Origin: Nitrospinae bacterium RIFCSPLOWO2_12_FULL_45_22
Lineage (GTDB): Bacteria; 2-12-FULL-45-22
Assembly (NCBI GenBank): GCA_001803565.1
Contig: MHDQ01000282.1
Span: 1 to 16,331, forward strand
Reading direction: 5' to 3'
Length of the DNA stretch: 16,331 nucleotides
A model generated the notes under the pieces. It made no database searches, was not told the origin of the DNA, and saw only the letters and a program-made list of their open reading frames with translations. Shown here one piece after another: positions 1,458 to 13,274 of the stretch (position 1 is its first letter; every line of letters begins with the position of its first letter). A program made the translations under genes and the position numbers.

Positions 1458-4046
1458 ATGGATAAAGACACCCAGGTGCAAGAGGATGTCTGGATACCCA
1501 CGGTTTGCAGCATGTGCTATAGCCAGTGTGGTATCCGGGCTCATCGGGTAAATGGTAAGGTGGTCAAGATCGAGGGCAACCCAGAAAGCCCGCTGGGTAT
1601 AGGAAGGATCTGTGCCAAGGGGCTAGCCGGCATAATGCTCCTATATGACCCCTATCGCCTAAATGTCCCTATGAAGAGGACTAACCCTGAGAAGGGTATA
1701 GGTATAGACCCTAAGTGGGTAGAGATAAGCTGGGAAGAGGCCCTGGACACTATTACTCAAAAACTCAAGAAGATCCGGGCGGAAGACCCCAGAAAGCTGG
1801 TATTTACTGGCTGCATACCGTCTATGTCCCCGATGGTCTTTGGCCTGGCATTATTCATGCCCGCCTTTGGCTCACCCAATGTCTTTATTTCTAACGGTCA
1901 TCAGTGCGGTAATGCAGAACACTTACTGGCTGCTACCCTCCATGGTGCCCTGACCACTAACCCGGACATGCAATATTGCAACTACCTCATTATGTTTGGT
2001 TGCCACTGTGGCACTGCGGCCTATTATGCCTATACCACCATGTGCCAGCGGATGGCCGATGCGCGGGTACGGGGTATGAAGCTGGTGGTAGTGGACCCTA
2101 TGCTGAATACCGGCGCAGAGAAAGCCGATGAATGGTTGCCTATCAAGCCCGGCACTGATGGTGCCCTGGCTATGGCCATGCTCCATGTCTTGCTTAATGA
2201 ATTAGGCATCTATGATGAAGAATACCTTAAAGAGCATACCAATGCCCCTTATCTCATTGCGATGGATGGCTATTATCTCCGGGATAGGGAGACAGATAAA
2301 CCCCTGATCTGGGACCCAAGGGACCAAAAGGCCAAGACCTATGATGACCCCAGCATAAAGGACTATGCCCTGGAAGGGGTCTATCAGTTTGATGAGATGC
2401 TGGGAAAACCCGCCTTTAGCTTGCTTAAAGATCAGGTAAAGAAATTCACCCCCGAACATGCGGCTGAAATCACTACTATACCCGCGGAGACTATCCGCCG
2501 GATAGCTAAGGAATTTGGTGAGGCGGCCCGGATCGGCAGCACTATAACTCTGGATGGTAAAGAGTTGCCTTACCGACCGGCATCGGTAGTCTATTTTAAA
2601 GGGGCTCATGGACATAATCATGCCTGGTTAACCTCATTGGCCATTGAGCTCCTCTGCGAGGTGGTAGGGGCCAGCAATGTACCGGGCGCCTTCCTGGGTT
2701 GTAACCCGGTATGCTATGGTTATCCAGAAACCGGCCGACCTCGTTGGGAGCCCAAAGTCGGGCCTGATGGGCTCTTATCCCCCGGGCTCTGGTTCGGTGG
2801 TAGCGAGCCGGGCTTGATACCCGGTCCTTATCCCCCGACCGAGCCACAACCACCACAGACCCTTAACCTGATGGACCTACTTACCCCAGCCCTGACTAGC
2901 CACTTACCGGTACTGACGATACCGCGTTGGGATGAATTCAAAATACCCTATAAGCCAGAGATGCTGATCAATTATGGGGCCAATAGCCTGATGAGTATAG
3001 GCAATCCCGAGATAGTGGCCCAGTCCTTCAAAGACCTCTTTGTGGTCTCCTTCAATCTCTGGCTGGACGAGACCACTGATCTGGCAGACATAGTATTGCC
3101 CGATACTTGCTATCTGGAACGACTAGACCCCTCGCCTAATATGCACCATCACCATTTCCCTGTGGGGTTAGGCGAGTGGGGCTGGCAGATCCGGCAGCCT
3201 GTAGTAGAACCCCTCTACCAGAGGCGGCATTTTTGTGAAGTGATGCTCGAATTAGGCGAGCGGGTAGGCATCCGGCCCGAGTTTTACATGGTCGTTAACC
3301 TGTACTTTGACCTGAAAGAACCGTTTAGATTGGACCCAGCAAAAAAATATAGTTGGGAGGAGATAGCAGATACTATATACAAATCCTATTTTGGCCCCGA
3401 GCATGGTCTGGAGTGGTTTAAGAAACATGGGGTGCTAAAATGGCCTAAAAAGCCAGAAGAACCTTATTGGAAGCCCTTTATTAAGGCCCGGGTACCGATC
3501 TATTTTGAATGGATAAAGGGATTGGGAGAAAAAATAAAGAAGATCGCTGAAGAACAAGACCTGAAGGATATTGATACCTCAGATTTCCAGCCCCTGCCCG
3601 ACTGGAAACCCTGTAGTGCCCTGGAGTATCAAGGGAATGAGTATGACCTGCAGGCCATCTATTATCGCGTACCCTGGCATACCTTCTCGATGACCTATGA
3701 GAACCCCTGGCTGGATGAGATATCAGACAATGAGCCATACAGCTACTTTATCTCTATCAATACCGATACTGCTAAAAAGAAAGGTATAAAAGATGGGGAC
3801 CTTATCTGGGTAGAATCGTTAGATGCCGGTAAAACCAAAGGCCGGGCCAGGTTGGTTGAAGGCATTCATCCCGAGGTAATCGGGGTAGCTAATAATGGCG
3901 GCCATTGGAGCCCTAACATGCCGGTGGCTAAAGGTAAAGGGGTATTTTTTGAGGCCCTATTACCTTTAGCCCTGGCCAAGACTGACTTGTTAACCATTAC
4001 TATGGATTGTGATGCCCGAGTAAAGATATATAAGGTGGAGGGATAG
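1458..4046 (+). CDS. Molybdopterin oxidoreductase catalytic subunit (DMSO reductase family, no Tat signal)
   Basis: An 862-residue catalytic subunit of the bis-pterin Mo/W enzyme superfamily. The N-terminal [4Fe-4S] motif is C17-x2-C20-x3-C24 with the fourth Cys at C52 (ICAKG). The Mo/W ligand is most likely C150 in ISNGHQCGNAEHLL, the position of the protein ligand in Psr/Phs-type enzymes. The C-terminal pterin-binding beta-barrel spans roughly 740-862. A His run (M562-HHHH) precedes a family-like segment (QIRQPVVEPLYQRRHF). The start is well fixed: GGTGG lies 7-10 nt upstream of ATG and an in-frame TAA lies at 1431. There is therefore no room for a Tat leader, which PsrA, PhsA and DmsA carry. 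The gene is followed 3 nt later by the Fe-S subunit and then an NrfD subunit. The substrate cannot be read from the sequence; sulfur-compound or other respiratory reactions are possible. A cytoplasm-facing complex like SoeABC is a reasonable comparison. Confidence 0.9.
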   Translation: MDKDTQVQEDVWIPTVCSMCYSQCGIRAHRVNGKVVKIEGNPESPLGIGRICAKGLAGIMLLYDPYRLNVPMKRTNPEKGIGIDPKWVEISWEEALDTITQKLKKIRAEDPRKLVFTGCIPSMSPMVFGLALFMPAFGSPNVFISNGHQCGNAEHLLAATLHGALTTNPDMQYCNYLIMFGCHCGTAAYYAYTTMCQRMADARVRGMKLVVVDPMLNTGAEKADEWLPIKPGTDGALAMAMLHVLLNELGIYDEEYLKEHTNAPYLIAMDGYYLRDRETDKPLIWDPRDQKAKTYDDPSIKDYALEGVYQFDEMLGKPAFSLLKDQVKKFTPEHAAEITTIPAETIRRIAKEFGEAARIGSTITLDGKELPYRPASVVYFKGAHGHNHAWLTSLAIELLCEVVGASNVPGAFLGCNPVCYGYPETGRPRWEPKVGPDGLLSPGLWFGGSEPGLIPGPYPPTEPQPPQTLNLMDLLTPALTSHLPVLTIPRWDEFKIPYKPEMLINYGANSLMSIGNPEIVAQSFKDLFVVSFNLWLDETTDLADIVLPDTCYLERLDPSPNMHHHHFPVGLGEWGWQIRQPVVEPLYQRRHFCEVMLELGERVGIRPEFYMVVNLYFDLKEPFRLDPAKKYSWEEIADTIYKSYFGPEHGLEWFKKHGVLKWPKKPEEPYWKPFIKARVPIYFEWIKGLGEKIKKIAEEQDLKDIDTSDFQPLPDWKPCSALEYQGNEYDLQAIYYRVPWHTFSMTYENPWLDEISDNEPYSYFISINTDTAKKKGIKDGDLIWVESLDAGKTKGRARLVEGIHPEVIGVANNGGHWSPNMPVAKGKGVFFEALLPLALAKTDLLTITMDCDARVKIYKVEG

Positions 4047-4049
4047 AAT

Positions 4050-4655
4050 ATGGTAAGGTATGGTATAGTAATAGACCTGAAGAGATGCATTGGATGCTAT
4101 GGTTGTTTAGTAGCCTGTAAGGCAGAGAACTTCACCCCACCAGGGGTATTCTGGGCCCGGGTATTAAAACGAGAGGACGGTAAATACCCGTCCGTGAGAC
4201 GACTATCTCTGCCATTACTCTGTATGCATTGTGCAGAGCCAGCCTGTGTAGAGGTTTGCCCAACCGGGGCCAGTACTCAGAGGGAGGATGGGATAGTCTT
4301 TATTGATGCCGAGAAGTGCTTTGGCTGCCGGTATTGTATGATGGCCTGTCCCTATGGCTCTCGCTTTTTCCATTACCGGGAAAGGCCATATTTTCCTGCG
4401 GGCTTTACCCCCTATGAAGAAATGGGGCGGCAAAAACATCCTACCGGGGTAGTAGAAAAGTGTGATTTATGCCGGGAGAGGATCGAGAAGGGCTTAGAAC
4501 CGGCTTGCGTGGCCAATTGCATGACCAAAGCCAGGTATTTTGGCGACCTGGAAGACCCGGCCAGTGAGGTCTCACGACTGATCAGACAGCGGCACGGCTT
4601 CCAACTACGGCCAGAGGCTGGCACTGACCCGTCAGTCTATTATCTATCACCTTAA
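4050..4655 (+). CDS. Four-cluster [4Fe-4S] ferredoxin subunit (DmsB/PsrB/NrfC type)
   Basis: The electron-transfer subunit that links the molybdopterin subunit to the NrfD membrane protein. The 201 residues contain four Cys groups: C13/C16/C19/C23, C58/C61/C66/C70, C90/C93/C96/C100, and C138/C141/C153/C157. That is the four-cubane pattern of the DmsB/PsrB family, with normal length. No signal peptide is present, as expected for a subunit that is either cytoplasmic or carried by a Tat-bearing partner; here the partner has no Tat signal either. ATG 4050 lies 3 nt after the stop of the upstream gene, and GTGGAGGG at the end of that gene serves as ribosome binding site, so the two are translationally close. 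Confidence 0.94.
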   Translation: MVRYGIVIDLKRCIGCYGCLVACKAENFTPPGVFWARVLKREDGKYPSVRRLSLPLLCMHCAEPACVEVCPTGASTQREDGIVFIDAEKCFGCRYCMMACPYGSRFFHYRERPYFPAGFTPYEEMGRQKHPTGVVEKCDLCRERIEKGLEPACVANCMTKARYFGDLEDPASEVSRLIRQRHGFQLRPEAGTDPSVYYLSP

Positions 4656-4671
4656 AACTGAGGAGGCAGCT

Positions 4672-5595
4672 ATGGAAGATAGGCTTATTCATCCTACCGA
4701 GTTGTTTGTAGACAGTTTTAAAGTCCAGAGGGAATGGATAGAAGGGAAAGGAATGCTTTTGCTGTTAGCCATCTTTTTTGGCGAGCTAGGGGCTGGCATG
4801 TTCCTGGTTTCCTGGTATCTTAATTACCTGCTGGGTATGGTCTTCGGGATAGTCATAGTAGCCTCACTAAAAACTACCTTCCATATCCTCTTCCTGGGCC
4901 AACCATTGAAGTTCTGGCGGGCCTTTACCCGCCCCCAGAGCTCCTGGATCAGCCGGGGCGTGATCATCATGTCGGTATTTGTGGTCTTTGGCGGCTTATA
5001 TGTCTTGCCTGCTATCCCAGGATTCAACTGGCTGCCCTGGACAGCCCAGAGCCCTTTAGGTAATGCTTTAGTGGTGGTGGCTATTGTAGCCGCTTTGGGC
5101 GAGATAATCTATGTAGGCTTTCTACTGGCCTCCTTACCATCTATACCTTTTTGGAATAGCGGGTTATTGCCTATACTATTTATCACCTACTCGTTATTGG
5201 ATGGGGCAGGCTTGACCTTCATTATCGCCCCGGCCCTCTCTAATGAGGCCATTAATGTTCATCAGTTGAAGCGGATCGAGATCTGGCTTACGCTGTTTGC
5301 TATTATAAATATATTGGCTTATATCTGGACTATGTACCACACCACCGTAGGGGGTAAAGAATCAGTCCTGGAATTGATCAAAGGCCGCATTGCGACCCCT
5401 TTTATCGGTGGTGTGCTCATAGTAGGGATACTGATCCCATTGCCAGTAGCGATTTATGCCCATTTTTTCCTGATGCCATATGCCGTCCTGGGGATAACTG
5501 CGTTTATGGCCTTAGCTGGAAGTTTTCTGCTGCGCTACTCTATCCTTAAGGCCGGGATCTTCCCACCCCTTTACCCATTATATACACCGGTATGA
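4672..5595 (+). CDS. nrfD: NrfD/PsrC-type membrane subunit
   Basis: The quinone-interacting membrane anchor of the complex. The 307 residues form about eight hydrophobic helices (roughly 27-52, 53-73, 94-115, 130-152, 165-187, 203-223, 242-263, 268-290). The loop after helix 2 has the family pattern FLGQPLKFWRAF followed by SWISRG (residues 74-96), as in PsrC/NrfD proteins. No heme ligand pattern of the b-type anchors is obvious. It starts 16 nt after the Fe-S gene with a strong GAGGAGG ribosome binding site. Gene order (catalytic, Fe-S, NrfD) defines a complex iron-sulfur molybdoenzyme that exchanges electrons with menaquinone or ubiquinone. The direction of electron flow is unknown. Confidence 0.9.
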   Translation: MEDRLIHPTELFVDSFKVQREWIEGKGMLLLLAIFFGELGAGMFLVSWYLNYLLGMVFGIVIVASLKTTFHILFLGQPLKFWRAFTRPQSSWISRGVIIMSVFVVFGGLYVLPAIPGFNWLPWTAQSPLGNALVVVAIVAALGEIIYVGFLLASLPSIPFWNSGLLPILFITYSLLDGAGLTFIIAPALSNEAINVHQLKRIEIWLTLFAIINILAYIWTMYHTTVGGKESVLELIKGRIATPFIGGVLIVGILIPLPVAIYAHFFLMPYAVLGITAFMALAGSFLLRYSILKAGIFPPLYPLYTPV

Positions 5596-5789: not shown

Positions 5790-6191
5790 GTGAAGGGATT
5801 GACCAGGGTAAAGGTAAATTTTTACGGTCTGATAAAAGATGTGGTGGACAAACGCTCCGATGAAGTCGAGCTGCCGGCTGGGGCTTCAGTAGAAGATTTG
5901 CTCCAGTTATTGGTTAGACAGCACGGAGAGCGGTTTCGTAATCGGGTTCTGACCAAAGAAGGTCAACTCCAGCGGTCGGTTAAGCTGGTAGTAAATAACG
6001 AACAGATAGACCCTGCCCGCTTAGATTTCAGCCTAACATCCAATAGGGATTCATCCTCCGCAGAAGTAACAGTCCTTATCTTCCCCCCCGTATTTGGCGG
6101 CCAAAAGAAGAAGGGTCAGGTCTATTTTTTTAGCAATTTATCTTTCTTGTTTAGAATCCTGCTTATTGAAGTAAAGTGCATTCCAAGATGA
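5790..6191 (+). CDS. moaD: MoaD/ThiS-like sulfur carrier, 3' end overrun by a transposon
   Basis: A small ubiquitin-fold sulfur carrier of the MoaD type, which as a C-terminal thiocarboxylate donates sulfur for molybdopterin synthesis. Residues 6-104 cover the complete fold, beginning RVKVNFYGLIKDV and ending IFPPVFGG, where G103-G104 are the residues that should be the free C-terminus. Instead the frame continues for 29 residues, most of them encoded by the left end of the REP-type transposon (from 6111). As it stands the carrier cannot be adenylated unless the tail is removed. The annotated start is GTG 5790; TTG 5799 is an attractive alternative because AGGTG lies 6 nt before it. It lies 194 nt after the NrfD-like gene on the same strand, a sensible place for a cofactor-supply gene. 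Confidence 0.75.
   Translation: MKGLTRVKVNFYGLIKDVVDKRSDEVELPAGASVEDLLQLLVRQHGERFRNRVLTKEGQLQRSVKLVVNNEQIDPARLDFSLTSNRDSSSAEVTVLIFPPVFGGQKKKGQVYFFSNLSFLFRILLIEVKCIPR
6111..6128. repeat. Left terminal inverted repeat of the transposon
   Basis: Eighteen bases that match the reverse complement of 7025-7042 exactly. It overlaps the transposase stop codon (6124-6122) and is read in frame as part of the MoaD-like tail. Confidence 0.8.
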
Positions 6192-6988
6192 TCGGCAATC
6201 TGTTTCTGTTTGTAGCCGTATCCGTACACGGCCTCTTCTATCATCTTGTCTCTCTTACCTTTGTCCCCACAGATGTCTTTGGTAAATATCTTTTCAAGAC
6301 CCGGTCTGCTTACGTATCTCTGACCCTTAGAGATTTCCGGAATCTTCTCATGCCCCCTGATGTATGGCTTCAGCCTTTCTGCAAACCTCTCTTCTCCCAG
6401 TAAACACTGTTCTTTGACTTCCTTCCAGATGGTCTCTTTTCCCATCCCTTCCATTACAAACTCCCGGTATCCTTTTTCAGCCGTGCTCCTGTTCGTGTGG
6501 AATTGTGAGAGTATCCATTGGGTGCTAAGGCAAGGATGGGGGGCCTGCATGCCTGCTGTGGCCAGATAGCTGCTCCAGTTCCATTCATCGGGTTGCTTTG
6601 TTATATGCGCCCTTATGGGGTTCAGGATAATGTACCTGGCTACTTCGAGGAGATGGGAGTCTTTCTGTATGAGAATAGCCTTGTATCTTCCCTGAAAGAG
6701 GTGGCCGGTCCTGTTGTGCCTTTTATTGAATCTCTGGGTATATATACCGTTCACCTGCCTCATGCCGATTGAAAGGTTTCCTTCAGGGGTTTCTATCAGT
6801 AGGTGATAGTGGTTATCCATAAGGCAGTAGGCATGGCATACCCAGTTATATCTTTTATTGACTTGCTGGATGGTATAGAGAAAACTGGTTCTGTCCTGAT
6901 CGTCTTTGAAGATGGTCTTCTTTTCATTTCCTCTGGATGTTATGTGATATACTGCTCCTGGGTATTCTATACGGAGGGGTCTGACCAT
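6122..6988 (-). CDS. REP-associated tyrosine transposase (Y1 HUH family)
   Basis: A single-strand DNA transposase/nickase of the IS200-like TnpA_REP family. The 288-residue protein begins with the classic MVRPLRIEYPGAVYHITSRG. It has the HUH motif H60-Y-H62 in CLMDNHYHLL, and the likely catalytic tyrosine Y83 in NGIYTQRFNKRH. The family segment GHLFQGRYKAILI and the NPIRA motif follow. A helix-turn-helix near 258-281 (QKQIADHLGMHFTSISRIL) is the extra C-terminal DNA-binding part found in longer members. All expected residues are present and the frame is intact, so it may be functional. The start is 36 nt inside the right terminal repeat. Confidence 0.93.
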   Translation of the reverse strand: MVRPLRIEYPGAVYHITSRGNEKKTIFKDDQDRTSFLYTIQQVNKRYNWVCHAYCLMDNHYHLLIETPEGNLSIGMRQVNGIYTQRFNKRHNRTGHLFQGRYKAILIQKDSHLLEVARYIILNPIRAHITKQPDEWNWSSYLATAGMQAPHPCLSTQWILSQFHTNRSTAEKGYREFVMEGMGKETIWKEVKEQCLLGEERFAERLKPYIRGHEKIPEISKGQRYVSRPGLEKIFTKDICGDKGKRDKMIEEAVYGYGYKQKQIADHLGMHFTSISRILNKKDKLLKK

Positions 6989-7835: not shown

Positions 7836-9680
7836 TTGTTATGTTTGGGGTTTTTAAAATATGTGCACTTCACCGATATAGAAACCGATATTTTTTCCAT
7901 AACGGTTTATCTGACCTATTCTCTGATCTATCTCCTTTTCTCTATAATAGCGACCTATATCGTTAACCTTTTGAGAATGGTGAATAAATTTAAACATTCC
8001 AGGCTACTGTTCTATTTTATTTGCACCGTTGCAGTGATTACCACTGCATTTACAAATATGATGATTTTCGCGGATTATAAGATTTTTACTATGTTTGGTT
8101 TTCATTTTAATGGCTTCGTTTGGAATCTAATAACTACGCCGGGTGGTATTAGATCTATGGGTGCAGACCTATCGACCCACATAAGTGTTGCTTTATTTGC
8201 AATATTTTTTGTTTTAATGCAAATTGCATTATTGTATGGAATAAATAAGTTATTATCCAATAATAATAGCCTATTATTTAAAAAACATGAATATAAATTT
8301 AGGAAGTCTTATCGTATGCTATTAATATGTTTTCTTATTTTAACTGTAACGGAGCGTATCACATTCGGCATATGCCATTTGCGGAGTTATACGCCTGTTA
8401 TTGAGGCAGCGGGTAAATTTCCCTTTTATATTCCTTTAACATTTTCAGAATTTGCCAAAAAAATGGGGGTTAAAAGAGTCAAGACTGATCAACTTACTAT
8501 TCACGTAAAATCATCGGTGCTAGAATATCCTCTTGAAAAATTAACGGTAAGACCGCCGTCTCATCCTGTAAACGTGGTTTGGCTTGTATCGGAATCATGG
8601 AGGGCCGATACGCTGACGCCTGAAATTATGCCCGGAACCTATGCTTTTGCTGAACATGCTCACCGATTTACCAATCACTACAGTGGCGGGAACGGCACCC
8701 GTATGGGAGTTTTTTCGATGTTTTACGGTGTATACGGCTCCTATTGGCTCAATTTTCTGAACAGTGGACGGGCACCGTTGATCATGGATTTGATGCAGCG
8801 GGAGAATTATCAATTTGATATGTTTACCAGTGCGGAATTTACCTATCCTGAATTTGACAGGACCGTTTTTGTCAATATCCCAACTCGGTTACTGCATCAA
8901 TCCGGTGGAACGGGCGGGTTTATAAATGACCGGAATAATGTTTCCGAGCTCATCAACTTCATCAAAAACTGTGACAAAAACCGCCCGTTTATGACCTTTA
9001 TGTTTTTCGAATCGCCTCATTCCCCATATACGTTTCCGGAAGATTGTATAGTCAGAAAAGACTACTTGCCTCATATTAATTATGCGATTACTGATATAAA
9101 GAAAAATATTGAATTGATCCATAATCGCTATATTAATTCAGTACATCACCTGGATACTCAGTTTGAGCGGATATTTGAATTCTTTAAAAAAGAGAAACTT
9201 TTAGAAAATACCATTGTGGTTGTCACTGGAGATCACGGTGAGGAATTCATGGAGAAAGGACATTGGGGGCATCGGTCTTCTTTTGTCGAGGAGCAAATAC
9301 GAGTTCCTCTGGTAATATACATTCCAGGATCAGGTAATGATGTCCATAACTCCATAACAAGCCACATCGATATTGTTCCTACAATAGCACCCTACCTTGG
9401 TATAAAAAACAAATCGGAAGATTACTGTCTGGGATATGATCTACTTGGAAATATCAAAAAGAATTATGCCGTTGTTTCGGACTGGTACCATATAGCAATC
9501 ATCAATGATCAATATAAATATGTAGTTCCGGTCAAGGACACAGTCGTTTCACTCAGCTACCTGTTTACCAGAGGTGATAAAAAAATCGAAAGTCAGGATG
9601 AGTTCTTTGTCGAAGGAAAAAATATTCTTTTGGAGATCATGGCCAATTTAGGGAGATTTTTAAAAAAAGGGACCTCTTAA
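7836..9680 (+). CDS. YejM/LtaS-like sulfatase-fold membrane protein
   Basis: An inner-membrane protein with an N-terminal helical bundle and a C-terminal alkaline-phosphatase/sulfatase domain, of the YejM (PbgA) and lipoteichoic acid synthase group. The segment GFHFNGFVWNLITTPGG (88-104) is typical of YejM-like proteins. Helices lie near 20-46, 57-78, 113-140 and 159-180. The globular domain keeps a full-looking metal site: E253 (LVSESWRAD), T288 as the nucleophile position (GGNGTRMGVFSMFYG), H395 (ESPHSPY), D466-H467 (TGDHGEE) and H476. Pseudo-enzyme YejM has lost part of its site, so this member may be catalytic. The reading frame is open upstream to 7761 and encodes the missing first helix, but has no ATG or GTG. 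The called start is TTG 7836 inside that helix. A GTG at 7736 with a good GAGGA site lies in another frame, suggesting a 5' frameshift. The gene is clearly more AT-rich than its neighbours. Confidence 0.8.
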   Translation: MLCLGFLKYVHFTDIETDIFSITVYLTYSLIYLLFSIIATYIVNLLRMVNKFKHSRLLFYFICTVAVITTAFTNMMIFADYKIFTMFGFHFNGFVWNLITTPGGIRSMGADLSTHISVALFAIFFVLMQIALLYGINKLLSNNNSLLFKKHEYKFRKSYRMLLICFLILTVTERITFGICHLRSYTPVIEAAGKFPFYIPLTFSEFAKKMGVKRVKTDQLTIHVKSSVLEYPLEKLTVRPPSHPVNVVWLVSESWRADTLTPEIMPGTYAFAEHAHRFTNHYSGGNGTRMGVFSMFYGVYGSYWLNFLNSGRAPLIMDLMQRENYQFDMFTSAEFTYPEFDRTVFVNIPTRLLHQSGGTGGFINDRNNVSELINFIKNCDKNRPFMTFMFFESPHSPYTFPEDCIVRKDYLPHINYAITDIKKNIELIHNRYINSVHHLDTQFERIFEFFKKEKLLENTIVVVTGDHGEEFMEKGHWGHRSSFVEEQIRVPLVIYIPGSGNDVHNSITSHIDIVPTIAPYLGIKNKSEDYCLGYDLLGNIKKNYAVVSDWYHIAIINDQYKYVVPVKDTVVSLSYLFTRGDKKIESQDEFFVEGKNILLEIMANLGRFLKKGTS

Positions 9681-10307: not shown

Positions 10308-10367
10308 AATGGATTGATGAACCACTGGATCACGAGAAAACATCAATCCATTGATCCATCAATCCAT
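10308..10367. repeat. Inverted and direct repeats beyond the patatin-like gene
   Basis: A perfect 12-bp inverted repeat (AATGGATTGATG 10308-10319, CATCAATCCATT 10341-10352) encloses 21 nt. The word CATCAATCCAT is repeated directly at 10341-10351 and 10357-10367. The set begins 2 nt beyond the stop of the minus-strand patatin-like gene, so its RNA would form an AU-rich hairpin there. It may act as an end-of-transcript structure. No clear U-run follows. Confidence 0.6.
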
Positions 10368-10368
10368 G

Positions 10369-13233
10369 CTACGCGTCTCTTTGCCAGCCTTTCAAAGTCT
10401 CAAACTCCGCCAGTGCCTGCTTCCCAAGATGCTCCCCTAGCGCTCGATAGGCCTCGAACTGGGCGTCGTCGAAGAACTGGTCGCCCGTGGATTGATGCGG
10501 AAAATCCGGGTGGTTCTTGTGGTAGTTGTTGATATGCACCGGAACCTCTTGCGCTGGCTCGTTTATGGAGGCTTTCAGGTAAAGCAGTCTTCCTTCCGAC
10601 GGATCCTGATCTGCCGTCTTCGGATAAGAAATTTTGCCTTCCGCTACACTTTTCTTGCTAAGCTGAGAAGACCCATCCTTGTTTTTTTCGGGTACGATCG
10701 CTGTCAAGTCGATATCAATCTCGATATTCTCCTCGATGAAAGCCATTCTGACCGCGTTGTTGAAGGATTCGAACCCGTATTCCGGGTCGGCCTCTCCGTC
10801 GCAGACCACGATGACCCGGCAGCGCCTCTGCAGAAGAGGTAGAAGCCCCAGGTTATCTCCGGTGTGTCCGCCGTCGGATAAGTTGACTATGCGCCCCCGC
10901 GCGGTGAAGCGGCCCAATAATTCCTTCCCCAACCACCAGGGCCAAAAGGTCATCCCCTGCTCCGGATTCCTATCGCTCTTGCAGTAGAGCCACGGATTGG
11001 CCATCCAGTAGCCCAGGCGCACGTTGAACAGAGTAGTCGCGAAGGCCTGCGCCCAGAAAGAATGGTACCCCATGGCTGAGCCTGCCGCTGCTGCCGAGAT
11101 GGTCATGGCCCTGGCCAGCTTGGTTTCGCCGCCGCGATATCTGTCCGTCGGAACATATCCCGTCACTCTGGATCCGATATAGTTCTTGGTGAAGATGAAA
11201 TGCTCGGAAAGCATGGTCTTGCGGTTCAGCTCATCGGAGCCTTGCAGGTTGAGGGCTGCCACGATAATGTGGTAAGGCGCACGATGGTTGTTTTTGCCGA
11301 GATCGGCCAGCCTAAGGTTTTCGCTGTTGCGCACGCTTACCAGCGGCATGCCTTGGCGCTGGTGCGGATCGCTGCGCGTGATACGGGCGTCGGTCTTTAG
11401 GTAAGCCTCGGTCAGCCGGTCCCGGTAGAAGTAATGCGGTGAGATTCGGTTGGAGTTTACCATCGTCCCCAACAAACTGAAAACAACCACGGCGCCGGCG
11501 AAAATAATCAACGGGGCACCATTGATCGCAAACGCAGCCGGAGACCAAACTAGCGTAAACTTCGGGTAAACCGAGGTCAGCAGGAAGGCGGAGACCCAAT
11601 CGAAGGTCAACGCGACAAACAATAAGAGCAAAAGGGTCAGTATGGGTTTCTTGAGTACGTTCATGACTTTGCTTGTTTTCGTCTTCGGATCGAATTTCTT
11701 CTGGAGCACGAAATAGCTTGCCAAAAGCGACACCAGCGACCACCAAAATTTCAGCTTGAAATAACTTAATGAAAATAGCAAGACCAGACCGACCGGCACC
11801 AGCGCGGCCAGCACCACGCCGTAAAAGGCCGCGCCCTGGATCGCGTTGAATAACGAGCGTCGTACCCGATCCCATTCCGGCAGGATCGATTTGCTCCAAG
11901 TACCCAGAACCACAGAAGCAAGCCCGCCGCCAAGCGCAAACGCTAACGGCAGAAAGAGTACGGCCAGGTAACTGCTATTGGCCAGCCTCAATGAATGGTA
12001 AACGCCATACGCCAGCGTCGCCACCGCCGGCACCACAACAGAGGCCCAATTGAAGATAAAAATGTATCTGGATTCAAAATGGTCCTCCACGTTGAAGCCA
12101 GATTTGGCTTGCTCGAAGGCATGGCTTTTAGGGTCGTAGATTCTGTTGCGAACAGAGCGGAGCCTCAAAAAGAAAATCGAGCACCAGACGACTCCGCCGA
12201 TGAAAAAAAACAGATAAGCTGTTTTTTTTTCGGAAAAACCGCCATAAAGCATGTGGTAGAGCGGCTCGCCAATGCGCGCGTAAGCCCATGTTTTGAGCTC
12301 ATTTACAACATAATCGACGCGGCTGTCTTCGACATCACCTGCATACATCAAGATTGAGTCATAGTCGTCGCTGGCCAGGCCGGGCAGTACACCGCGAACA
12401 GTGGCCACAAAATCATCTTTTCCCCTAAAGAAACCCCGATCTTGTAGGTAAACCAGTTGGGCTAGGGCGCTGTCGGAAAAGCCATCGGCTTTTAGGCAGT
12501 CCAACGTCTTCTGCGTAATCTTGTAGTAGCTGTTCTCGGAATAATTGAGCTCCCGTAGAAAAGGCGTGGCGGTTAGGATCGAATCCGGCTTAGAAGCCGA
12601 TCTCCCAAGCCGGTCTCCGGTGTCAGACGGATATTCGGTTATCGCCAACAGAATGAAATGTATCAACGACACGAGGGCAAAAAGGAGAAGCGTGTAGAGT
12701 ACGAGATGGTGCAAGATACCGGCAAAGAGGGTGCCGACGGCGCGCTGGAAATCGCGGCTCAAAATACCCTTGCGCGGAACGATGTACTCGCCGTGGGTGC
12801 GCAGGTGGTGCATCTGATGCCGAACGTTCAGCTTGGTGTCGTCTTTGCCGGCGTATTCAGCCGATTCGTTCAGGCCCACAAAGGGCGAGTTTTCCGGATC
12901 CACGCCAACGACTTCTTGGGCTTCGTCCGGCTTGTCGGGGGAGAGCAGAGATGTCAAACAGCTTCCGATATAGCCGCCACCGGAAACCGTACTCAGGTAG
13001 TCGAATCTCCTGAAGATCCGCCCCTTTATGAAGCTCTGCATGATCCCCAGGCACAGAGTCGCCGAGCGAATACCGCCGCCGGAAAAGCAAATACCAGTTA
13101 GAGAAGCATCGTCGGATAAACTGGGGAGATCGTTTTTCTTGCGCCTATCTTCGATATATGCCTTTTCGGAACGAATGACATCTGCCAAGTCGTGTGTGTG
13201 ACTATCTTGACCGTTTGATGGCTTCCCGTCCAT
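10369..13233 (-). CDS. Large membrane-embedded patatin-like phospholipase
   Basis: A 954-residue predicted lipid acyl hydrolase. The N-terminus carries a patatin/cPLA2-like oxyanion loop (GICFSGGGIRSATLCLGIM, G52-G54). The likely nucleophile S84 lies in YLSTVSGGGYIGS, so the motif is V-S-G-G-G rather than the usual G-x-S-x-G. The second dyad residue, about D787, is in IVNLSDGGHTGDNLGLLPLL. Between them, roughly residues 168-600, are about eight hydrophobic helices, for example VLYTLLLFALVSLIHFILL, AYLFFFIGGVVWCSIFFLRL and PILTLLLLLFVALTF. The two halves of the hydrolase must come together around a membrane domain. ATG 13233 has an excellent AGGAGGAGG site 6 nt upstream. The gene stands alone, with no partner on its strand nearby. 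Substrate and role (lipid turnover, envelope or defence) cannot be told from sequence. Confidence 0.8.
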   Translation of the reverse strand: MDGKPSNGQDSHTHDLADVIRSEKAYIEDRRKKNDLPSLSDDASLTGICFSGGGIRSATLCLGIMQSFIKGRIFRRFDYLSTVSGGGYIGSCLTSLLSPDKPDEAQEVVGVDPENSPFVGLNESAEYAGKDDTKLNVRHQMHHLRTHGEYIVPRKGILSRDFQRAVGTLFAGILHHLVLYTLLLFALVSLIHFILLAITEYPSDTGDRLGRSASKPDSILTATPFLRELNYSENSYYKITQKTLDCLKADGFSDSALAQLVYLQDRGFFRGKDDFVATVRGVLPGLASDDYDSILMYAGDVEDSRVDYVVNELKTWAYARIGEPLYHMLYGGFSEKKTAYLFFFIGGVVWCSIFFLRLRSVRNRIYDPKSHAFEQAKSGFNVEDHFESRYIFIFNWASVVVPAVATLAYGVYHSLRLANSSYLAVLFLPLAFALGGGLASVVLGTWSKSILPEWDRVRRSLFNAIQGAAFYGVVLAALVPVGLVLLFSLSYFKLKFWWSLVSLLASYFVLQKKFDPKTKTSKVMNVLKKPILTLLLLLFVALTFDWVSAFLLTSVYPKFTLVWSPAAFAINGAPLIIFAGAVVVFSLLGTMVNSNRISPHYFYRDRLTEAYLKTDARITRSDPHQRQGMPLVSVRNSENLRLADLGKNNHRAPYHIIVAALNLQGSDELNRKTMLSEHFIFTKNYIGSRVTGYVPTDRYRGGETKLARAMTISAAAAGSAMGYHSFWAQAFATTLFNVRLGYWMANPWLYCKSDRNPEQGMTFWPWWLGKELLGRFTARGRIVNLSDGGHTGDNLGLLPLLQRRCRVIVVCDGEADPEYGFESFNNAVRMAFIEENIEIDIDLTAIVPEKNKDGSSQLSKKSVAEGKISYPKTADQDPSEGRLLYLKASINEPAQEVPVHINNYHKNHPDFPHQSTGDQFFDDAQFEAYRALGEHLGKQALAEFETLKGWQRDA

Positions 13234-13274
13234 TTTGGTCCTCCTCCTAACCTGAATAATTCCTATTTCCTAAC

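What the first reader, a model, noticed from the sequence alone, without database searches (positions are those of the whole stretch)
10369..13233. Patatin fold split by an eight-helix membrane domain, with V-S-G-G-G at the nucleophile
The oxyanion loop and Ser84 are at the N-terminus, and the Asp of the DGG motif is about 700 residues later, with roughly eight transmembrane helices between. The nucleophile motif departs from G-x-S-x-G. This suggests a lipase assembled on a membrane channel-like domain. The accessory setting between mobile remnants makes a defence or toxin-type effector conceivable, but nothing nearby encodes a sensor.
Basis: partly seen in the sequence, partly recalled or inferred. 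Interest (0 to 1): 0.6.

Follow-up and report, generated by a model that had tools for sequence, protein, structure and literature searches.

The report
Membrane-embedded patatin/cPLA2-like lipid hydrolase
This gene encodes a fat-cutting enzyme whose active site is built from the two ends of the protein chain, with a bundle of about eight membrane helices inserted between them; it belongs to a large, seemingly undescribed family found across many bacterial phyla, and nothing here shows it to be a toxin or defence gene in this organism.

Summary
The ORF (10369-13233, minus strand, 954 aa) has the oxyanion motif SGGGIR at 51-56, Ser84 in STVSGGGY and Asp787 in SDGGH, with about eight transmembrane helices between them. 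It is not a one-off. At least 573 loci in GTDB genomes, from many phyla, encode relatives. In all 49 aligned homologues with both motifs, every predicted membrane segment lies between Ser and Asp. VSGGG is the family norm, not a deviation. AlphaFold2 (pLDDT 84.6, pTM 0.85) folds the two ends into one patatin/cPLA2 domain (human cPLA2 Z about 26; PlpD 230 of 255 residues at 3.0 A). A distant member folds the same way. Positive charges place the active site on the cytoplasmic side. Best reading: an inner-membrane phospholipase/acyl hydrolase whose membrane domain seats the active site on the bilayer. 'Channel-like' is unsupported. Defence is not supported for this copy; TIR neighbours mark one alphaproteobacterial subclade only. 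An unexpected lead: several separate branches sit beside a c-type cytochrome, GMC oxidoreductase and RoxA/fatty-acid-oxygenase-like di-haem cytochromes, including one GMC-patatin fusion. The window's genome has no GMC and no RoxA-like cytochrome above cut-off.

The parts
10369..13233 (-). Whole gene, 954 aa: membrane-embedded patatin/cPLA2-like hydrolase
   Evidence: ORF; Pfam Patatin above cut-off at 48-118; AF2 model pLDDT 84.6, pTM 0.85
13240..13248 (-). Shine-Dalgarno AGGAGGAGG ahead of the ATG at 13233
   Evidence: sequence
12757..13116 (-). N-terminal half of the catalytic domain (residues about 40-159), cytoplasmic by the positive-inside rule
   Evidence: alignments A2 and A4; model; charge count
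13066..13083 (-). Oxyanion motif SGGGIR (residues 51-56)
   Evidence: nearly invariant in 53 homologues
12973..12987 (-). Nucleophile motif VSGGG (83-87); Ser84 codon at 12982-12984
   Evidence: Ser84, Gly85 and Gly86 invariant in 53 homologues
11452..12756 (-). Inserted membrane domain (residues about 160-594): 8 TM helices, near 170-196, 338-356, 386-410, 424-444, 466-487, 494-511, 534-556 and 571-592
   Evidence: hydropathy and AF2 helices
12223..12645 (-). Large loop between TM1 and TM2 (residues 197-337), predicted extracytoplasmic, partly low model confidence
10372..11451 (-). C-terminal half of the catalytic domain (residues 595-954)
   Evidence: alignment A3; the SDGGH region shows weak PLA2_B similarity; 5 of 43 members match PLA2_B weakly
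10864..10875 (-). Catalytic Asp motif DGGH (787-790); Asp787 codon at 10873-10875
   Evidence: Asp787 invariant in 53 homologues
10435..10503 (-). Family signature FPHxSTxDQFFxxxQFExYRxLG (residues 911-933)
   Evidence: near-invariant
10309..10367 (-). 22-nt inverted repeat just past the stop codon, possibly a transcription terminator
   Evidence: 86% complementary arms; not called by the terminator scan

Best explanation
It is an integral inner-membrane acyl hydrolase of the patatin/cytosolic-PLA2 fold (phospholipase A or lysophospholipase type). Shown by sequence and model: residues about 40-159 (oxyanion SGGGIR and Ser84) and 595-954 (Asp787) together form one alpha/beta hydrolase domain with a Ser-Asp dyad, and about eight TM helices are inserted between nucleophile and acid. 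An even helix number returns both halves to the same face; charge bias says the cytoplasmic one. Inferred: the membrane bundle seats the mouth of the active site on the bilayer so that acyl chains of membrane phospholipids enter directly, giving free fatty acid and lysolipid for membrane remodelling or turnover. The 141-residue outer loop and the fast-changing bundle may tune regulation or lipid preference. In some relatives the released fatty acid probably feeds oxidation enzymes; this copy appears to stand alone.
For: Ser84 and Asp787 are invariant and the oxyanion glycines nearly so across 53 homologues. In 49 of 49 rows with both motifs all TM segments lie between Ser and Asp, none outside. 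AF2 model pLDDT 84.6, pTM 0.85, about 97 around both catalytic residues. Structural alignment spanning both ends: cPLA2-delta Z 26.1 (384 residues, 3.7 A), cPLA2 Z 25.8 (402 residues, 3.6 A), PlpD Z 19.9 (230 of 255 residues, 3.0 A), patatin-17 Z 17.5-18.4. A distant member with a different insert gives the same result (cPLA2 Z 25.8, PlpD 233 of 255). The N-half profile hits VipD, cPLA2-delta, ExoU and cPLA2 by sequence; the C-half shows weak PLA2_B similarity. Positive-inside: K+R counts of 6, 4 and 7 in loops 2, 4 and 6 against 1, 1 and 1 in loops 3, 5 and 7; family-wide 25 of 27 members with an even helix count agree.
Against: No activity is known for any member. The Ser84-Asp787 distance was not printed by any tool; contact is inferred from alignment to whole domains. 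Residue -2 of the nucleophile is Thr, not Gly. Substrate, sn-position and physiological role are unknown, and the neighbours here (2-oxoacid oxidoreductase; a LapC/YejM-like sulfatase-fold protein on the other strand) give no functional link. The membrane-face assignment rests on the positive-inside rule alone.
Confidence: 0.75

Rival explanations
1. It is a self-directed defence (abortive infection) effector: on infection it degrades the cell's own inner membrane, as the CBASS phospholipases CapV and CapE do.
For: CapE and CapV are among its structural matches. Four alphaproteobacterial relatives forming one starred group sit among TIR/ThsB-like genes, and the model of one of them carries an N-terminal helical bundle. 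One plasmid relative lies beside a second patatin and an MPN/JAB gene, a Streptomyces one beside a gene annotated as a Pycsar effector. Patchy occurrence.
Against: No PADLOC model hits the protein or the nine other window proteins scanned. Of the nearest neighbours of relatives very few match defence models. The window copy lacks the N-terminal extension, and its own clade shows no defence neighbours among those examined.
Confidence: 0.13
2. It belongs to a fatty-acid oxidation (oxylipin-like) pathway: the hydrolase frees unsaturated fatty acids, which RoxA/FadCcp-like di-haem cytochromes and a GMC oxidoreductase then oxygenate.
For: In 49 family-bearing genomes 8 of 9 strong homologues of the linked c-type cytochrome, and 8 of 28 strong RoxA-like cytochromes, lie within about 10 kb of a family gene (expected 0.04 and 0.11). 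A GMC-patatin fusion in Mesorhizobium with a cytochrome gene directly upstream. NCBIfam CytoC_perox hits. Related P. aeruginosa enzymes oxygenate oleate (PMC4496055). A catalase/animal-peroxidase protein near another member.
Against: The window's genome (85% complete) has no GMC gene and no RoxA-like match above cut-off; no such neighbours in the window clade. c-type cytochromes are periplasmic, whereas the hydrolase site is predicted cytoplasmic.
Confidence: 0.08
3. The membrane domain is a channel or transporter, with the patatin domain as a regulatory or inactive appendage.
For: About eight helices and a large outer loop.
Against: The catalytic residues are the best conserved part, the membrane part the worst. 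The insert's best fold match is weak (heme exporter Z 8.1, helical). Helix count varies from 3 to 11 between members by hydropathy.
Confidence: 0.04

Closest known systems
Cytosolic phospholipase A2 (group IV; 1cjy, 5iz5) and the PLA2_B/lysophospholipase family (PF01735)
   Same: Closest fold (Z about 26); SGGGxR oxyanion motif with a conserved Arg; SGG-type nucleophile elbow; a long insertion between Ser and Asp (cPLA2 carries a soluble cap there, from own knowledge); weak PLA2_B similarity at the Asp motif
   Different: Bacterial; the insertion is a polytopic membrane domain; far below the PF01735 cut-off; no C2 domain match in Pfam
Classic patatins and bacterial PlpD (PF01734)
   Same: Same core fold (PlpD 230 of 255 residues at 3.0 A); Pfam cut-off passed by the N-half
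   Different: Ser-Asp spacing 703 against roughly 140-150 (own knowledge); Thr at -2 instead of Gly; membrane insert; no POTRA/barrel secretion parts found
CBASS effectors CapV and CapE
   Same: Patatin-fold phospholipases (Z 17-20)
   Different: Those are soluble, nucleotide-activated and encoded with a CD-NTase; no such gene was found in the window
ExoU and VipD
   Same: Detectable N-half sequence similarity and fold
   Different: Those are secreted host-directed effectors; this one is an integral membrane protein with no secretion part found
Unnamed family annotated 'patatin-like phospholipase family protein' or 'hypothetical protein' (e.g. WP_111069335.1, WP_244673261.1, WP_331375401.1)
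   Same: This is the family: same motifs, same insert
   Different: No described or named member was found in ten literature searches

Membership tests
Patatin/cPLA2 fold superfamily | Alpha/beta fold with nucleophile elbow and the acid of the dyad in one domain | tested here: met
   AF2 model aligned to cPLA2, PlpD, CapE and patatin-17 across both halves; same for a distant member
Patatin/cPLA2 fold superfamily | Oxyanion GGGxR/K motif | tested here: met
   SGGGIR 51-56, conserved in 53 homologues
Patatin/cPLA2 fold superfamily | Ser and Asp of the dyad conserved | tested here: met
   Ser84 and Asp787 invariant
Patatin/cPLA2 fold superfamily | Ser-Asp within hydrogen-bond distance; lipid hydrolysis | not testable with these tools
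   coordinates not available; no assay
Classic patatin (strict G-x-S-x-G) | Gly at -2 and +2 of the nucleophile | tested here: not met
   T-V-S-G-G: +2 is Gly, -2 is Thr, family-wide. Not filed as a classic patatin
Patatin PF01734 | Pfam gathering score | tested here: met
   30.3 against 27.7 bits, but only positions 1-69 of 191
PLA2_B / group IV PLA2 (PF01735) | Pfam gathering score | tested here: not met
   10.6 against 23 bits for the C-half; resemblance by fold only
CBASS phospholipase effector (CapV/CapE) | Adjacent CD-NTase | tested here: not met
   no PADLOC hit in the window proteins scanned
CBASS phospholipase effector (CapV/CapE) | Activation by a cyclic nucleotide | not testable with these tools
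   needs biochemistry
Linked cytochrome/GMC module of part of the family | GMC oxidoreductase and RoxA-like di-haem cytochrome nearby | tested here: not met
   no GMC in the genome; RoxA-like only below cut-off; genome 85% complete

The most novel reading that the evidence does not exclude
A widespread, undescribed family of polytopic membrane phospholipases in which the bilayer domain is threaded through the active site, a bacterial membrane-integral counterpart of cPLA2; in several lineages it works with GMC and di-haem cytochrome oxygenases as a bacterial phospholipase-to-oxygenase (oxylipin) route.
Probability: 0.3. Interest if true: 0.75.

Novelty: new variant of a known kind. Interest (0 to 1): 0.5.

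Why it matters
Patatin/cPLA2 enzymes are usually soluble and dock on membranes from outside. A family with hundreds of members that carries a membrane domain inside the catalytic domain would show how an interfacial lipase can be built into the bilayer, and gives a defined set of residues, loci and partner genes to test. The link of some members to fatty-acid-oxygenase-like cytochromes makes a bacterial parallel of the animal cPLA2-to-oxygenase sequence directly testable.

Tried and rejected
Single-protein scan of GTDB contigs found nothing; the profile scan did. No relatives in phage records, one in viral contigs. Whole-length profile against PDB sequences returned GPCRs and transporters, an artefact of hydrophobic columns; replaced by profiles of the two soluble halves. 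The C-half alone has no PDB sequence hit of note. BFVD fold search gave nothing significant. No clear fold match was found for the membrane domain (best Z 8.1, helical), which is inconclusive, not evidence of a new fold. Universal partner gene: none. Ten literature searches found no paper on a patatin split by a membrane domain; most subscription papers and preprints are not held. NF040606 could not be used as a genome query, so PF21419 was used.

Full report
WHAT IS THERE. The finding is an intact 954-aa ORF on the minus strand, 13233 down to 10369, with a strong Shine-Dalgarno. It carries SGGGIR (51-56), STVSGGGY with Ser84 and SDGGH with Asp787. Pfam sees only the first third of a Patatin domain (residues 48-118, 30.3 bits, cut-off 27.7); NCBIfam and PADLOC see nothing. 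Hydropathy finds seven clear membrane segments, all between Ser and Asp; together with the helices of the model, eight.

A FAMILY. tblastn finds 39 plasmid records and none in phages. In a 53-row alignment Ser84, Gly85, Gly86, Asp787, Gly788 and His790 are invariant and the oxyanion motif nearly so. In all 49 rows in which both motifs were found, every predicted TM segment lies between Ser and Asp (3 to 11 of them by hydropathy) and none outside. The membrane insert is the least conserved part. The nearest relative is in a Desulfobacterales MAG (58% identity over the shared part; sister in the tree with support 100), followed by Saprospiraceae members.

DO SER84 AND ASP787 MEET? AlphaFold2 on the 53-row alignment gives pLDDT 84.6 and pTM 0.85, about 97 around both residues. 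VIA-align places human cPLA2 at Z about 26 (384-402 residues at 3.6-3.7 A, model range 1-950), CapE at Z 20, PlpD at Z 19.9 (230 of its 255 residues, 3.0 A, model range 43-950) and patatin-17 at Z 17.5-18.4. A compact domain such as PlpD, which holds its own dyad, can only be aligned over 90% of its length if both ends of our protein form that domain. The distance itself was not printed, so contact is inferred. A distant member (L090, 837 aa) gives the same result: cPLA2 Z 25.8, PlpD 233 of 255 residues. By sequence the N-half profile reaches VipD (1e-4), cPLA2-delta (1e-3), ExoU and cPLA2, and five C-halves show weak PLA2_B similarity, best E 0.003. A shared fold does not prove a shared function.

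WHICH SIDE. Loops 2, 4 and 6 hold 6, 4 and 7 K/R; loops 3, 5 and 7 hold 1 each. Over the family, 25 of 27 members with an even helix count show the same bias. Both catalytic halves are therefore predicted to be cytoplasmic and the 141-residue loop after TM1 outside. This is inference from the positive-inside rule.

NEIGHBOURS. No partner is universal. In the window the upstream genes are a ferredoxin and a 2-oxoacid:acceptor oxidoreductase, the downstream one a LapC/YejM-like sulfatase-fold protein on the other strand. The gene is richer in G+C (52-55%) than most of its surroundings (mostly 39-50%), which fits horizontal gain but is weak evidence. Recurrent contexts elsewhere: (a) TIR/ThsB-like genes in one alphaproteobacterial group of four; (b) peptidoglycan hydrolases beside several plasmid members; (c) a c-type cytochrome, a GMC oxidoreductase and RoxA-like di-haem cytochromes on several separate branches, with a single-chain GMC-patatin fusion in Mesorhizobium onobrychidis.

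TEST OF CONTEXT (c). Forty-nine genomes chosen only for holding the family were searched. Of nine strong homologues of the L039 cytochrome, eight lie within 10 kb of a family gene; 0.04 are expected by chance. Of 28 strong RoxA-like cytochromes (E below 1e-12), eight in five genomes lie within about 11 kb, against 0.11 expected. The copies are not all independent (two Chromobacterium species; tandem pairs) and the lead was found in the same loci, so the P-values overstate the case; but one linked set (G108, contig C40) belongs to a second family gene that had not been seen before. The RoxA-like proteins tested pass the NCBIfam 'di-heme-cytochrome C peroxidase' cut-off. The related PA2077/PA2078 of P. 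aeruginosa oxygenate oleic acid, and the hydroperoxide is toxic when unbalanced (PMC4496055). A hydrolase that frees fatty acids beside such oxygenases makes sense, but the compartments (cytoplasmic site, periplasmic cytochromes) are unresolved. The window's own genome has no GMC gene and no RoxA-like match above cut-off.

DEFENCE. No PADLOC hit in the window proteins scanned; among 120 nearest neighbours of relatives only isolated hits, such as one ThsB, with no recurrent system, and three TIR_2. A defence role may hold for the TIR-linked subclade, whose modelled member carries an extra N-terminal helical bundle, but it is not supported for this copy.

CONCLUSION. Observation confirmed; architecture well supported; activity, substrate and role inferred. 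It works like a cPLA2/patatin hydrolase, is not filed as a classic patatin (strict motif not met) nor as PLA2_B (cut-off not met), and is best called a new, membrane-threaded variant of the patatin/cPLA2 fold.

Noticed in passing
L105:4694-9382 (Mesorhizobium onobrychidis plasmid pOM4): Single-chain fusion of a GMC oxidoreductase with a member of this family, with a weakly RoxA-like cytochrome gene directly upstream.
   Followed up: partly
G083:C15, G091:C27, G108:C40; also G070:C3 and G106:C64 without the hydrolase: Clusters of tandem RoxA-like di-haem cytochromes with the 823-aa type c cytochrome recur in several phyla, mostly next to a family gene.
   Followed up: partly
L090:9512-12022; also L043, L005, L011, L063, L085: TIR-linked and planctomycete members have long N-terminal extensions; in L090 it is modelled as a helical bundle (about residues 8-128), absent from the window copy.
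   Followed up: partly
L104:9405-9803 (Streptomyces aurantiacus plasmid): A gene annotated as Pycsar system effector lies directly downstream of a family member.
   Followed up: no
L098:11422-14271 (Phyllobacterium plasmid): A protein with catalase and animal haem peroxidase domains lies about 2 kb downstream of a family member.
   Followed up: no
window 6122-6988 (-): REP-associated tyrosine transposase (NF047646 above cut-off) with a C-terminal extension showing a weak helix-turn-helix match.
   Followed up: no
window 1458-5595 (+): Three-gene molybdopterin oxidoreductase / DsrO-like Fe-S / NrfD membrane subunit operon; the catalytic subunit falls well below every NCBIfam cut-off listed, so its substrate is open.
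   Followed up: no
window 7836-9680 (+): LapC/YejM/PbgA-like protein (DUF3413 plus sulfatase fold) below the NCBIfam cut-off.
   Followed up: no
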